Of a stretch of DNA of 56,846 nucleotides, positions 1,461 to 27,312 are shown one piece after another. Each line of letters opens with the position of its first letter. The stretch's first letter is position 1. Made by a program: the position numbers and the translations under genes. Source of the DNA: a virus; IMG/VR virus record IMGVR_UViG_3300010397_000012, positions 1-56,846 of that record, one strand, 5' to 3'. The notes beneath the pieces are model-generated. The model was not told the origin of the DNA. It worked only from the letters and a program-made list of their open reading frames with translations, and did no database searches.

Positions 1461-4543
<3,083 letters not shown>

Positions 4544-4547
<4 letters not shown>

Positions 4548-9169: not shown

Positions 9170-9759
9170 AGCGGCCGACCGAGCGCCCGTGCCGGTGTTG
9201 CGGGCGCATTTTCTCGTCCGTTGTTGCCGAGTCGTCGCTGTGTTCTCGGTCGTGCGTGAACCGGCTGCGGAAGCTGCCCACGCCTGATCAGAGATTCTGG
9301 CGGAAGGTTGATCGGCGCGGCGTTGACGAGTGCTGGCCGTGGTTGGGTGGAACATCACACGACGGACGTGGCCGGATGCTTTGGACGGACGGGCATCAGT
9401 GGTCCGCTCCGAGAATTGCGTGGGCGCTGGAGTTCGGCTCACCGGCCGAGCGGTCCTTGCACGTCTGCCACACCTGCGACAACCCGAATTGCTGCAACCC
9501 GAAGCACCTATGGCTCGGCACGTCGCGCGACAACGTGGCTGACCGGGACCACAAGAACAGAACCTCAAAAGGCCAAGCGCACTACTGCGCGAAGCTGACG
9601 CCTGAGCAGGTTCTCGACATCTTCTCATCCCCTGATGGGCCGTCCGCTTTGGCGAGAAAGTACGGCGTGAGCGCCAGCGTGACGTCGGCTATCAGGCTCG
9701 GCAAGAAATGGCGACACGTTACGCAGCATGGAGGTTCAGTTGGCTTATCAGAAGGATGA
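9166..9759 (+). CDS. HNH homing-type endonuclease with N-terminal zinc finger
   Basis: About 197 residues from the GTG at 9166, which overlaps the exonuclease stop. The N-terminus has a CRCCG...CSRSC zinc-ribbon. The centre has DECWPWLGG, then HVCHTCDNPNCCNPKHLWLG and NVADRDHKNR, the HNH_3 pattern of free-standing phage homing endonucleases. The C-terminus (SALARKYGVSASVTSAI) is a helix-turn-helix DNA-reading element. It interrupts the recombination module and overlaps the next gene by about 20 nt, as expected for a selfish insertion between essential genes. Confidence 0.85.
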   Translation: MKRPTERPCRCCGRIFSSVVAESSLCSRSCVNRLRKLPTPDQRFWRKVDRRGVDECWPWLGGTSHDGRGRMLWTDGHQWSAPRIAWALEFGSPAERSLHVCHTCDNPNCCNPKHLWLGTSRDNVADRDHKNRTSKGQAHYCAKLTPEQVLDIFSSPDGPSALARKYGVSASVTSAIRLGKKWRHVTQHGGSVGLSEG

Positions 9760-9952
9760 CTCAGAGCTTGGTGCCTTGTGGGTAAAAAGCAGCGCCAAGG
9801 GGCCGTATATGACCGGCGAGATCAACGGCGTCAAAGTGGTGTGTTTCCCCGCGAAGAAGTCCAGTGACAAGTCGCCTGACTGGCGCGTCCTGAAGTCGAA
9901 GCCGCTCGCTGGCACCGCGCCCGCAGAGCCCCGTGGCGGTGACTGGGAATGA
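9740..9952 (+). CDS. Small conserved protein of the recombination module, 70 aa
   Basis: I choose the TTG at 9740 rather than the ATG at 9728. A perfect GGAGG (9730-9734) lies 5 nt before the TTG, and the product then begins MAYQKDDSELGALWVK, which looks like a natural N-terminus. The body (YMTGEINGVKVVCFPAKK, SPDWRVLKSKP) resembles small DUF736-like beta-barrel phage proteins often found near ERF or exonuclease genes. The role is unknown. The overlap with the HNH gene may reflect homing-endonuclease insertion. Confidence 0.65.
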   Translation: MAYQKDDSELGALWVKSSAKGPYMTGEINGVKVVCFPAKKSSDKSPDWRVLKSKPLAGTAPAEPRGGDWE

Positions 9953-10377
9953 TCTTCCAGGCGTTCTGCGACGACGACGCCCACTTCGCGCTGGACAACC
10001 GGCCGGCGTGGCTCGCGTTCCTCGGCACGGTGCGCGGTTCCGAGTTGACCGTGACCGTGGAGAAGAAGTCGCGGAAGCGGAGCGTCGTCCAGAACGCCTG
10101 GCTGTGGGGTGTGGCCTATCCGCTGATCGCGGAGTCGATCGGCTACGACCACCACGAGCACGAGCATCTGCACTACGACTTGCTGGCTGTGCGGTTCGGC
10201 ACGAAGGCCGTGACGCCGCTCGTTGACGGAGCGCCGCCGCGCATCGTGCCTAAGCAGACCAGCGCCGGCCTCACGACAAAAGAGTTCAGCGAATACATGG
10301 AATGGCTGGTGCGGTTCGCCGCGGAGAAGTTCTCCGTCGTGCTGCCGCTACCGGACGAGAAACGAGAGGCCGCGTGA
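9949..10377 (+). CDS. NinB-like recombination protein
   Basis: 142 residues. Recognisable blocks are ELTVTVEKKSRKRSVVQNAW, LWGVAYPLIAESIGY, and the C-terminal LTTKEFSEYMEWLVRFAAEK. NinB (lambda Orf) and relatives share the pattern of a basic RS-x-x-QN-x-x-W segment, a replaced middle and a TT-x-EF helix. NinB helps recombinases load by binding single-stranded DNA and SSB. Its presence directly after ERF and the exonuclease supports the role. The assignment is by pattern only. Confidence 0.6.
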   Translation: MIFQAFCDDDAHFALDNRPAWLAFLGTVRGSELTVTVEKKSRKRSVVQNAWLWGVAYPLIAESIGYDHHEHEHLHYDLLAVRFGTKAVTPLVDGAPPRIVPKQTSAGLTTKEFSEYMEWLVRFAAEKFSVVLPLPDEKREAA

Positions 10378-23477: not shown

Positions 23478-24122
23478 ATGGCTGCTGCAAAGTCTACCGC
23501 AACGCAAACCGTCACGATCAAGCCGCCCAACTTCGCGTTCGCCTCGTTCAAGGTGAAGGGCGTCGCCCCGTTGGTGATTCACCGCTTCTCGTCGAAGATT
23601 CTCACGCAGATGCGTATCAAAATGGAGACAGGCAAAGCGGCGTCATCGAAGAAGACGCGCGAGCCGAAGGATTCAGACCAGACGTACAACGAAGCTCGCT
23701 ATCGGTCGCCGGAAGGATGGGACGGGTTTCACGCGGGCTCAATCCGGTGCGCGCTGATCTCGGCGTGTCGCCTTGTTGGCTTCAAGATGACGCTGGCGAA
23801 ACTGTCGCTCTTTGTCGAGGCTGACGGCCGCGACGCGGAGCAGCCGCAGATCCCGTTGATTCGCATCATCGGCAAGCCAGTGAAACAGGAAGACATGGCG
23901 CGCGTGGAAACCGGGCAACCCTACTGCACGATTCGCGCGGCGTATCACGATTGGTCCGCGAAGATTCGACTGCGGTACGACGCGGATCAGTTCACATTGG
24001 AGGACGTGAGCAACCTGCTCGCCCGCGTCGGGATGCAGGTCGGCATCGGGGAAGGAAGACCAGACAGTAAGAACTCGGCAGGCATGGGCTGGGGCCTGTT
24101 TGAGATTGAGGAGGCGAAATGA
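23478..24122 (+). CDS. Conserved phage protein with RAMP-like Gly-rich C-terminus
   Basis: 214 residues, strong Shine-Dalgarno. Features: FKVKGVAPLVIHRFSSKILT near the N-terminus, GFHAGSIRCALISACRLVGF in the middle, and a C-terminal Gly-rich loop, GMQVGIGEGRPDSKNSAGMG followed by WGLFEI. A closing G-x-G-x-x-RP...GxGxF/G loop recalls the RAMP (Cas7/Cas5-like) ferredoxin-fold proteins, but I see no CRISPR. I recognise this as a widespread phage family without an assigned function. It is coupled by overlap to the next gene, and the pair is followed by a 5-nt periodic non-coding array. The RAMP comparison is inference. Confidence 0.6.
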   Translation: MAAAKSTATQTVTIKPPNFAFASFKVKGVAPLVIHRFSSKILTQMRIKMETGKAASSKKTREPKDSDQTYNEARYRSPEGWDGFHAGSIRCALISACRLVGFKMTLAKLSLFVEADGRDAEQPQIPLIRIIGKPVKQEDMARVETGQPYCTIRAAYHDWSAKIRLRYDADQFTLEDVSNLLARVGMQVGIGEGRPDSKNSAGMGWGLFEIEEAK

Positions 24123-24571
24123 AAGACACGAACGACGCACTCGCGCGAGAATTGACGCGGCTCGCGAACGTCCACGGAGGGCTTTTGCATCCGCGCGACG
24201 TCGTGGCGGCGGCGAGAGACGAAGACTCACCGCTACATGAGCAGTTCGACTGGGACGATTCAGAAGCGGCAGAGCGGTGGCGCATCCATCAGGCGCGACA
24301 ACTGATGGTGCGTGTCCAGGTCACATACGCGGACAAAATCACGCACGACGTCCTCGTGAGCGTGACCACAGATCGGAAGTCTGGCGGCTATCGCCTGGTG
24401 TCTGCCGTGATGGCAGACGATGAACTGCGACAGCAGATGTTGGCGGACGCGAAGACGGAGATGCGTCGGTTCTCAGTCAAATACAAGCACCTGACCGAAC
24501 TCGCTGAAATCTTCGCGGTCATGGACGAGGTAATTGATCGTCCGGCTGTGGCACAGGCAGCCACTGCATAA
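24119..24571 (+). CDS. Partner protein of the 23478 gene, 150 aa
   Basis: ATGA overlap with the preceding gene. The N-terminus LARELTRLANVHGGLLHPRD, then HEQFDWDDSEAAERWRIHQA, suggests a helical domain. A beta region follows (VQVTYADKITHDVLVSVTTD), then a helical C-terminus (MRRFSVKYKHLTELAEIFAV). I recognise the combination as a recurring phage pair. Possibly a small subunit of one complex with the upstream product. Function unknown. Confidence 0.6.
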   Translation: MKDTNDALARELTRLANVHGGLLHPRDVVAAARDEDSPLHEQFDWDDSEAAERWRIHQARQLMVRVQVTYADKITHDVLVSVTTDRKSGGYRLVSAVMADDELRQQMLADAKTEMRRFSVKYKHLTELAEIFAVMDEVIDRPAVAQAATA

Positions 24572-24586
24572 ATAGTTGGCAAATTG

Positions 24587-25131
24587 GGCGTGGAATGGAG
24601 TGGTCCAGTTAGGCTCGGAAAGTCGAGGCCTGTATTTGCAGGCGGGGCAAGTCGGGGCAAGACACGGTGGTGACTGTTCTGGCTGGTTGGGGCAGGAGTG
24701 GATTGCAGACGCGAGATTGGGTAAGTCCGGCCATCGTGTGGACCTGCAGGCAAGTCAATGAATGCCGAGTAGGTCTATGGTGAGGCGCGGCCTGGCCTGG
24801 CCTGACACTGCAGGTGCGGTCAGGCGAGACGTGATGCGGCAATGTACGGCCCGACATAGTCGGGCAGGCGCGGAGAGGTAAGGCACAGCGCGGACGGGCA
24901 AGTAATTGCACAGCAGGCGTGGTCCGTCGTGTTGTTGTCGGGTCCGTCACGGCTTGTTACGGTGAGGCAGGCGTGGAAAGGCAGGATCGGGCTAGGACAG
25001 GCACGGCGCGCGACGGCAGGCTAGTCAGGGCAAGGAGTAGATGGAAGAGCAGGCCATGACCGGTGTGGCATGTCGCTAAATGGCAAGTTCTCGGTCGGGC
25101 AGGTCTTGTCAGATGTTCGGCATAGGAGCGG
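24587..25131 (+). repeat. Pentamer-phased GG array, non-coding, about 545 bp
   Basis: Over this stretch GG occurs once every 5 nt, with occasional one-base phase slips. For example GG starts at 24587, 24592, 24597, 24602, 24612, 24617 and 24627, then at 24779, 24784, 24789, 24794 and 24799, and again at 24990, 24995, 25000, 25005 and 25015. Slots lacking GG usually hold GA, GT, AG or TG, that is, one substitution. By hand roughly 60 of about 105 slots carry GG. The three bases between are variable, so this is not a simple tandem repeat. The 5-nt period excludes coding. Two hairpins lie within, at 24628-24643 and 24850-24864. Confidence 0.8.
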
Positions 25132-25243
25132 TGCAGCGTGAGAATCGTTGCATCGCTCTTTTGTTTCACGTGACTCGTAAACGTCGTAACTCTCGCATCC
25201 TTCCGTGACACTGTAGCGATCTGCTCGCACACTACTGTTCGGC
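25132..25243 (+). other. AT-richer leader between array and late operon
   Basis: The pentamer periodicity stops here. The segment is less GC-rich and contains TCGTAAA (25175-25181) and TCGTAAC (25184-25190). The 11-mer CGTCGTAACTC also occurs in the early promoter spacer (6621-6631). A late promoter probably lies here, but I cannot point to convincing -35 and -10 boxes. Confidence 0.35.
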
Positions 25244-25603
25244 GTGGTCTCCCCGTCCGCAACAGCCGATCCCATTTCAACGTCTCAGGCGGAGCCGTCT
25301 CGACGGGTGATCGAGGAAACAGAGATACCGTGCCCCGAGTTCAACTGTGCGCGTGACATGCACTGCCCACAGTGTGAGGGCCGACGCTGGATAGTGACGG
25401 CGCGCAAGGTTCAACTCGGCGTCCCCTTCGACGAGCAAGCCGCCCACGCCTATATCCAGGGCCTGCACGCCCACATACGCAAAGCCGCCCAGTCCCTCGA
25501 GGACGCGGCCAAGGACTTCGAGAAGCTCGGCCACCAGAAACAAGCAGGCGCCTGTAGGCAAGCATCTAAGGCCGTCCTGCAGCCCGTGGAAGGGCAGGAC
25601 TAG
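25244..25603 (+). CDS. Small zinc-finger protein before the packaging genes, 119 aa
   Basis: Start uncertain: GTG at 25244 or GTG at 25307; neither has a good ribosome binding site. CPEFNCARDMHCPQCEGRRW is a four-cysteine zinc knuckle near residue 30. A long helix follows (GLHAHIRKAAQSLEDAAKDF). Function unknown. Confidence 0.5.
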   Translation: MVSPSATADPISTSQAEPSRRVIEETEIPCPEFNCARDMHCPQCEGRRWIVTARKVQLGVPFDEQAAHAYIQGLHAHIRKAAQSLEDAAKDFEKLGHQKQAGACRQASKAVLQPVEGQD

Positions 25604-26040: not shown

Positions 26041-27312
26041 GTGAAAGGCCCCGCCAAGGTCAGCCACATCAAGGACTTGGTGCCGGACCCGCAGAACCGT
26101 CGGAAGCACAACCCCCGGAATATCGGCATGGTGGTGGACGCGCTGCACCAGGTGGGCGCGGCCCGGTCGATCGTCATCGACGAAGACAACGTGATTCTGG
26201 CAGGGAACGGGGTCACGGAAGCGGCGGCCGAGGCCGGGATCACGAAGGTGCGCGTTGTGGACGTGGCCGGCGACGAACTCGTGGCGGTGCGGCGGATCGG
26301 GCTGACGGTGGAGCAGAAGCGGACGCTGGCCATCGCGGACAACCGGGCGGCGGAACTGGCCGAGTGGGATTCCGAACAGTTGGCGGCGGACGTGGCGGAC
26401 GGGCTGAGCCTGCAGCCTTGGTTCTCGGACGAGGAGCAGGCCGCACTCCTGGCGAAGCATCTGCCACCCGTGGACGGGTTGACCGACCCAGACGCGGTGC
26501 CGGCCGAGCGGGCGACGGACATCAAGCCCGGAGACCTGTTCCAGTTAGGGCGGCATCGACTGCTGTGCGGTGACTGTACCGATCCGACTCTGGTGGAGCG
26601 GCTGATGGACGGGGCGCGCGCCGGGCTGATGAACACCGACCCGCCGTACGGGGTGACATACGCCAATGACGACAGGCCAAATCCCGGAGTAGCCAAACCC
26701 AGAGTAGCCAATGACACGCTAGAAGCCGAGAACCTTCAGCGGTTCCTTGAGTCGGCTTTCGGCATGGCGAAGCTCGTCGCGTTAGCCGAGAACGCGGCGT
26801 GGTACATGTGGCACGCCCATCTCACTCAGGGGTACTTTGCAGCAGCAGCAGCAGCAGCAGCAGCAGATGTGATCCTTCATCGCCAAATCATCTGGGTGAA
26901 GCCGGTCCTCCTACTCGGGCGCGGCCATTACCACTGGAAGCACGAGCCATGTTTCATGGGGTGGGTCGACGGCCACCAGCCGCCAGACTACGGCCTCGGC
27001 CAAGGTGAACGGACCCAGACGACTATCTGGGAAATCGCGCACGTCACGCAGGCTGAGCGGAAAGAGTTCAACCATTCCACGCCCAAGCCGGTCGGGCTGT
27101 TCACGATTCCCATCGTGAAGCACCTCCGCGGCGGGGAGTCCTGTTACGAGCCGTTCGCTGGAAGCGGGCCACAATTTATCGCCGCCGAGCAGCACGGCGT
27201 GGCCTGCCACGGGACAGAACTAGAGCCGCGGTTCTGCCAAGTCATCATCGACCGCTGGGAAGCCTTCACAGGACTTCATGTTGAGAAGCTCGGCGAGGTG
27301 GTCCCGGCATGA
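26041..27312 (+). CDS. ParB-like domain fused to an N6-adenine DNA methyltransferase
   Basis: 423 residues, GTG start. Residues about 5-110 are a ParB/Srx-type domain (IKDLVPDPQNRRKHNPRNIG, AGNGVTEAAAEAG, AIADNRAAELAEWD). Next comes LGRHRLLCGDCTD. Methyltransferase motif IV, DPPY, is at 200-203, and motif I, FAGSG, at 372-376 near the C-terminus. The order IV before I is that of the beta class. The product probably methylates phage DNA, giving protection from host restriction or marking packaging DNA. Its location between cos-like DNA and terminase is common for ParB-methyltransferases. A run of nine Ala (coded by a GCA repeat) lies around residues 267-275. Confidence 0.9.
   Translation: MKGPAKVSHIKDLVPDPQNRRKHNPRNIGMVVDALHQVGAARSIVIDEDNVILAGNGVTEAAAEAGITKVRVVDVAGDELVAVRRIGLTVEQKRTLAIADNRAAELAEWDSEQLAADVADGLSLQPWFSDEEQAALLAKHLPPVDGLTDPDAVPAERATDIKPGDLFQLGRHRLLCGDCTDPTLVERLMDGARAGLMNTDPPYGVTYANDDRPNPGVAKPRVANDTLEAENLQRFLESAFGMAKLVALAENAAWYMWHAHLTQGYFAAAAAAAAADVILHRQIIWVKPVLLLGRGHYHWKHEPCFMGWVDGHQPPDYGLGQGERTQTTIWEIAHVTQAERKEFNHSTPKPVGLFTIPIVKHLRGGESCYEPFAGSGPQFIAAEQHGVACHGTELEPRFCQVIIDRWEAFTGLHVEKLGEVVPA
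26839..26865 (+). repeat. (GCA)9 microsatellite inside the methyltransferase gene
   Basis: Nine uninterrupted GCA triplets code for nine alanines between GYF and DVILHR, in the segment between motifs IV and I where target-recognition sequences usually lie. Such pure triplet runs expand and contract by slippage without breaking the frame, so the Ala length may vary between isolates. Confidence 0.85.

What the first reader, a model, noticed from the sequence alone, without database searches (positions are those of the whole stretch)
24587..25131. A 5-nt-phased GG array in non-coding DNA
For about 545 bp GG recurs every fifth base with variable bases between and only a few one-base phase slips. 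Missing slots are mostly one substitution from GG. The sequence is not a simple tandem repeat and cannot be coding, since 5 is not a multiple of 3. Preservation of phase but not of sequence suggests that something reads a fixed 5-nt register, on DNA or on a transcript. I know of no named phage element like this.
Basis: seen in the sequence. Interest (0 to 1): 0.92.

Follow-up and report, generated by a model that had tools for sequence, protein, structure and literature searches.

The report
VIPR guide-RNA array in a phage
The odd stretch in which GG returns every fifth base is a string of about ten guide-RNA units of a recently described phage weapon called VIPR, a relative of CRISPR that appears to read only two of every five RNA letters to find its DNA target, so the pattern is real and important but belongs to a system already reported in 2026.

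Summary
The 5-nt GG register is real. GG autocorrelation at lag 5 is 32 against 11.7 in shuffles (z 6.7). G power peaks at period 4.91 and is unique in the window. It is the vrRNA array of a VIPR system (PMC13142463, preprint 2026). The gene two upstream (23478-24122) is a Vipr RAMP protein: profile match to solved SUSP1 Vipr 36pp, E 7.9e-8; predicted fold matches Cas7/Csm3, Z 11. The next gene (24119-24571) is a probable accessory protein, and the array follows it directly. Nearly all homologous loci carry the same register beside the gene pair, in AT-rich and GC-rich phages, actinophages and prophages. The 'phase slips' are not noise. Nine of ten in the window read NGCA before GG, usually every 9-12 pentamers, and divide the array into about ten guide modules; in close mycobacteriophages whole modules (59 and 113 nt) are gained or lost. 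NN composition fits codon positions 1-2, as the published 1-nt-skip code predicts. No natural target was found, and no transcription was tested. Verdict: new member of a known kind, with a head-to-tail, tail-less array layout.

The parts
23478..24122 (+). vipr gene, 214 aa Cas7-like RAMP protein (phrog_4652); C-terminal glycine-rich loop GIGEGRPDSKNSAGMGWGLFE
   Evidence: phmmer vs PDB 36pp_D 'SUSP1 Vipr protein' E 0.0038; profile A2 E 7.9e-8; AlphaFold2 model pLDDT 81 matches Csm3/Cmr/type VII/gRAMP Cas7 folds, Foldseek E 4e-6, VIA Z 11.2
24119..24571 (+). probable vap (VIPR accessory protein), 150 aa (phrog_15946), start overlaps the vipr stop; winged-helix-like N-terminal part plus long C-terminal helix
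   Evidence: conserved directly after vipr in most loci; model pLDDT 88; weak winged-helix matches, best Z 6.2
24587..25112 (+). vrRNA array: 107 units of consensus GG(C/T/A)NN, mean period 4.91
24587..24640 (+). guide module 1 (10 pentamers + TGCA); NN = GT AT GT CC TA TC AA GA CT TT
24641..24694 (+). guide module 2; NN = GG AA GG AA AC GG CT CT TG GG (read as codons NNx: G[KN]G[KN]TGLL[CW]G)
24695..24748 (+). guide module 3; NN = GT TT GA GA TG AA CG AT GT CC
24749..24812 (+). guide module 4 (12 pentamers + TGCA)
24813..24866 (+). guide module 5
24867..24915 (+). guide module 6 (9 pentamers + AGCA)
24916..24969 (+). guide module 7
24970..25018 (+). guide module 8 (9 pentamers + GGCA)
25019..25051 (+). 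short irregular module 9 (two 4-nt units, AGAT and AGCA)
25052..25112 (+). last module, with one 6-nt unit
25124..25160 (+). 15-bp hairpin followed by TTTTGTTT: predicted intrinsic terminator / 3' end of the array transcript
   Evidence: -27.3 kcal/mol

Best explanation
The array is the guide-RNA part of a phage VIPR system. Shown here: a Vipr-type RAMP gene and a probable accessory gene lie just upstream on the same strand; the array keeps a GG(C/T/A)NN register; NGCA|GG junctions divide it into about ten modules of mostly 9-12 pentamers plus a 4-nt unit; a predicted terminator closes it. Inferred from the published SUSP1 work (PMC13142463): it is transcribed on the + strand, Vipr subunits coat each guide one per 5-nt repeat holding GGY, and the exposed NN pairs base-pair with double-stranded DNA, one target base being skipped after each pair, so a module reads about 20 bases over about 29. 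Binding would silence genes of competing phages or satellites. Inferred here: each NGCA|GG junction ends one guide and starts the next, and modules are gained and lost whole, most likely by recombination between the near-repetitive modules.
For: Vipr: sequence match to solved SUSP1 Vipr and Cas7-family fold. Array: register and composition. Positive control: the same HMM recovers SUSP1's four guides, one upstream and three downstream of the gene pair, as PMC13142463 reports. Linkage: the same 4.9-nt register lies within about 1 kb of vipr in nearly all homologous loci, on the same strand, from a 73%-identical Vipr in an AT-rich phage (L001) to 31%-identical Viprs in Mycobacterium and Gordonia phages and in bacterial genomes including Bradyrhizobium, Roseococcus and Rhodanobacteraceae. 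Modules: NGCA spacing has CV 0.41 against 0.88 for random placement. BobaPhett has exactly one 59-nt module more than ByChance with 1 other difference in about 940 nt; Donkeykong has exactly two modules (113 nt) more than Pippy with 1 difference. Code: the window's 96 NN pairs fit codon positions 1-2 of its own genes best of seven models (-3.96 bits per pair; antisense -4.13; mononucleotide -4.16; other sense registers -4.65 and -4.71); 3046 pairs of 39 related loci also fit that model best.
Against: No natural target: five guide patterns in IMG/VR gave no full match, 1.1 Mb of related DNA gave no excess for skip 1 over skips 0, 2 and 3, and two guides of the Bradyrhizobium relative gave chance-level hits in 196 genomes. 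The per-guide structured tail of SUSP1 vrRNAs is absent. Only 55% of the window's units carry an exact GG, fewer than in most relatives, so part of the array may be worn. The probable Vap has no detectable similarity to SUSP1 Vap. The NN composition test could be biased by avoidance of G next to GG. L102 has vipr and vap but no array found.
Confidence: 0.93

Rival explanations
1. A long RNA that is a single scaffold for a helical Vipr filament (structural or decoy RNA), with NN bases free to drift and no base-pairing guide role.
For: Register is kept and NN varies; no targets found; no per-guide tails.
Against: NN composition matches codon positions 1-2 rather than base composition; modules of similar length with a fixed junction and whole-module turnover are not expected of a scaffold; SUSP1 vrRNAs are shown to guide (PMC13142463).
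Confidence: 0.05
2. A DNA element (packaging signal, origin or partition site) whose G register is read on double-stranded DNA; it lies just before the HNH, ParB-methylase and terminase genes.
For: Position 2.2 kb before the small terminase gene; strong GC skew.
Against: In relatives the array follows vipr, not the terminase: in actinophages it lies in the early region or among structural genes, upstream of vipr or between vipr and vap.
Confidence: 0.01
3. A TRAP-like regulatory RNA: repeated triplets with 2-3-nt spacers bound by a ring protein (comparison from general knowledge).
For: TRAP also reads a 5-nt register of (G/U)AG repeats (general knowledge; no call).
Against: Consensus here is GG(C/T/A)NN, about 100 units, and the neighbouring protein is a RAMP.
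Confidence: 0.005

Closest known systems
VIPR systems (Viral Interference Programmable Repeat; PMC13142463, SUSP1 and P. fulva, type II)
   Same: Phage-borne Vipr RAMP plus a small neighbouring gene plus non-coding RNA of GGY/NN pentamers, 9-16 repeats per guide, NN hypervariable.
   Different: SUSP1 guides are separate, each with its own 3' tail (L110); here about ten guides are joined head to tail through NGCA|GG junctions with one hairpin at the end. The accessory protein is not detectably related to SUSP1's. The preprint mentions 'staggered arrays with overlapping vrRNAs' in other types; its supplement could not be read, so whether this is that layout is open.
Class 1 CRISPR effector RAMPs (Cas7/Csm3)
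   Same: Fold of the protein (Z 11); RNA-binding glycine-rich loop; multi-unit guide array.
   Different: No CRISPR repeats, spacers or other cas genes seen nearby; 5-nt instead of 6-nt register; information spread over NN pairs.
TRAP binding sites
   Same: 5-nt repeat register in RNA (general knowledge).
   Different: Different triplet, number of repeats and protein.

Membership tests
VIPR | Vipr protein, a small RAMP with RRM core and G-loop | tested here: met
   Profile E 7.9e-8 to 36pp SUSP1 Vipr; Cas7-like fold Z 11; G-loop conserved in 19 homologs
VIPR | Non-coding RNA of alternating GGY/NN motifs next to vipr | tested here: met
   Consensus GG(C .52/T .26/A .21)NN directly after the gene pair; third base is A in a fifth of units, so slightly relaxed from GGY
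VIPR | 9-16 repeats per guide | tested here: met
   Eight of ten modules have 9-12 pentamers plus one 4-nt unit; module 9 is short
VIPR | vap accessory gene in the locus | tested here: inconclusive
   A conserved 150-aa gene overlaps the vipr stop, winged-helix-like, but no similarity to SUSP1 Vap; the published vap families were not available
VIPR | Carried by phages or prophages | tested here: met
   Window encodes terminase, portal, protease and tail proteins
VIPR | RNA is expressed and binds Vipr | not testable with these tools
   Only a predicted terminator at 25124-25160 supports transcription
VIPR | DNA targeting by the 1-nt skip rule | tested here: inconclusive
   No targets found; NN composition fits codon positions 1-2
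VIPR type II (SUSP1 clade) | Each vrRNA ends in its own conserved structured tail | tested here: not met
   Modules abut directly; the predicted terminal hairpin follows the whole array
VIPR with hammerhead-interspersed array | Hammerhead ribozymes between guides | tested here: not met
   No Rfam match in the window at gathering thresholds
CRISPR-Cas class 1 | CRISPR repeat-spacer array beside cas genes | tested here: not met
   No tandem array of CRISPR-like repeats found in the region by TRF, and no PADLOC Cas match for the two neighbouring proteins; other genes of the window were not screened against PADLOC

The most novel reading that the evidence does not exclude
VIPR arrays of this clade are modular, like CRISPR spacer arrays: NGCA|GG junctions bound single guides cut from one long transcript, and phages change targets by gaining, losing and swapping whole modules, probably by recombination between modules, without any Cas1-like integrase.
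Probability: 0.5. Interest if true: 0.75.

Novelty: new member of a known kind. Interest (0 to 1): 0.6.

Why it matters
VIPR is proposed to be the ancestor of the CRISPR effector proteins and uses a split guide code. This locus and its relatives give a set of multi-guide arrays, some in cultured Mycobacterium and Gordonia phages, whose module-by-module turnover can be read from sequence. That makes an open question directly testable: how a guide system without Cas1 changes its targets. It also shows that an unexplained 5-nt phase in other phage genomes can be used to find VIPR loci.

Tried and rejected
Coding sequence: a 5-nt register does not fit codons; ORFs listed there are mechanical and were not tested against protein libraries. 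Simple tandem repeat: TRF finds only two short runs. Rfam: no match. DNA similarity to known phages: none. DNA packaging or origin signal: rejected by linkage to vipr rather than terminase. Target searches: window guides 5, 1, 2, 7 and 8 in IMG/VR gave 0, 4, 0, 0 and 4 matches with 16-18 fixed bases; the neighbouring pairs did not continue in any. 123 guides against 1.1 Mb of related loci showed no excess for skip 1. Two Bradyrhizobium guides in 196 genomes gave 3 and 1 hits, at chance level. Fold search of Vap: no Foldseek match at E below 0.5, only common winged-helix shapes. L091 first seemed to lack an array but its contig ends inside one. L134 'arrays' with 2% GG are an artefact of the parse, probably masked sequence. 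The Walker-A-like reading of guide 2 is suggestive only: one of many motifs that could have been noticed.

Full report
OBSERVATION. The 5-nt GG register at 24587-25131 is real and strong. GG autocorrelation at lag 5 is 32 against 11.7 +/- 3.0 in 1000 dinucleotide shuffles (z 6.7). Fourier power of G peaks at 4.91 nt, and no other place in the 56.8-kb window comes near. The region lies between a gene ending at 24571 and one starting at 25244.

WHAT LIES NEXT TO IT. The phage (terminase, portal, prohead protease, tail genes) carries two overlapping genes directly upstream, 23478-24122 (214 aa) and 24119-24571 (150 aa), known only as PHROGs of unknown function. A relative of the second gene (52% identity) in an AT-rich phage contig, L001, is followed at once by an array with the same 4.9-nt G register. 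That tied the array to the gene pair. Searches with the 214-aa protein gave 19 viral loci and, with an alignment, 24 loci in bacterial genomes; nearly all have the register close to the gene, downstream, upstream or on both sides, on the same strand.

IDENTITY. The 214-aa protein matches the solved 'SUSP1 Vipr protein' 36pp (phmmer E 0.0038; profile E 7.9e-8). Its predicted structure matches Cas7-family RAMPs, above all Csm3 (Foldseek E 4e-6; Z about 11 over 136-155 residues). A preprint of 2026, PMC13142463, reports VIPR: a Vipr RAMP, an accessory Vap protein and vrRNAs made of 9-16 YNNGG repeats in which GGY is constant and NN hypervariable. The NN pairs bind double-stranded DNA with one skipped base after each pair, and the skipped base usually falls on the codon wobble position. 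The HMM fitted to the present arrays finds the four SUSP1 guides, one upstream and three downstream of the gene pair, as published. The window array is therefore a vrRNA array.

ANATOMY. The array parses into 107 units of consensus GG(C/T/A)NN; per-position entropies are 0.75, 1.33, 1.54, 1.88 and 1.98 bits. The ten 4-nt units are nine NGCA and one AGAT. Over 27 arrays, 187 of about 240 four-nt units read NGCA, and nearly all four-nt units are followed by GG. NGCA units are spaced mostly 9-12 units apart (CV 0.41, random 0.88), so the array is a chain of modules: 54, 54, 54, 64, 54, 49, 54, 49 nt, then two irregular ones. This explains the 4.91 mean period. A 15-bp hairpin with a T-rich tail closes the array (25124-25160), and several other arrays also end in a predicted hairpin. 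Unlike SUSP1, there is no tail after each guide.

MODULE TURNOVER. In closely related mycobacteriophages the array lies just before vipr. BobaPhett and ByChance differ by exactly one 59-nt module and 1 base in about 940 nt; Donkeykong and Pippy by exactly two modules (113 nt) and 1 base; Saal and BobaPhett by one 5-nt unit and 1 base. The few point changes inside these arrays fall on NN. The junction-bounded module is thus an evolutionary unit. Gap placement is ambiguous because the modules resemble each other, which fits recombination between modules.

CODE. The 96 NN pairs of the window fit codon positions 1-2 of the window's own genes best of seven models; 3046 pairs of 39 related loci also fit that model best. 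This is independent support for the wobble-skip reading, with the caveat that avoidance of G beside GG could shift the composition. No natural target was found. The host is unknown, and exact-match scans are insensitive.

VERDICT. Shown: register, modules, linkage to a Vipr-type RAMP, module turnover in relatives. Inferred: transcription, Vipr binding, targeting of competing phages, processing at NGCA|GG. It is a new member of a known kind. The type within VIPR cannot be assigned, because the preprint's supplement was not readable here.

Noticed in passing
L111:3583-3906; L153:1769-2038: Annotated 'hypothetical proteins' (UmaThurman gp40, Pipp gp43) lie almost wholly inside vrRNA arrays and are probably not genes.
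   Followed up: partly
L083:5174, L086:5174, L144 and L146-L152:1000: Annotated vipr start codons in most of the mycobacteriophages read fall inside the end of the array; Vipr homology starts about 200 nt later, and Quico's annotation starts at 1147, after its array.
   Followed up: partly
L152:1000-2217: In mycobacteriophage Gorge vipr and vap are annotated as one open frame, a possible fusion or frameshift; the tblastn match covers only residues 23-117 of Vipr.
   Followed up: no
L102: A contig with vipr and vap but no array found in its 4.5 kb, with an extra gene between the two.
   Followed up: partly
L158: A Rhodoplanes serenus plasmid with phage genes carries a Vap homolog next to a 206-aa gene in the vipr position, with a gap after it that could hold an array.
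   Followed up: no
26041-27312: A ParB-like plus DNA methylase fusion protein sits directly before the terminase genes.
   Followed up: no
1461-4547: 1028-aa collagen-like tail fibre gene with many 9- and 18-nt Gly-X-Y type repeats.
   Followed up: no
L093:7379-7909 and 9207-10026: Two long arrays (108 and 167 units) flank the vipr-vap pair in one phage.
   Followed up: partly
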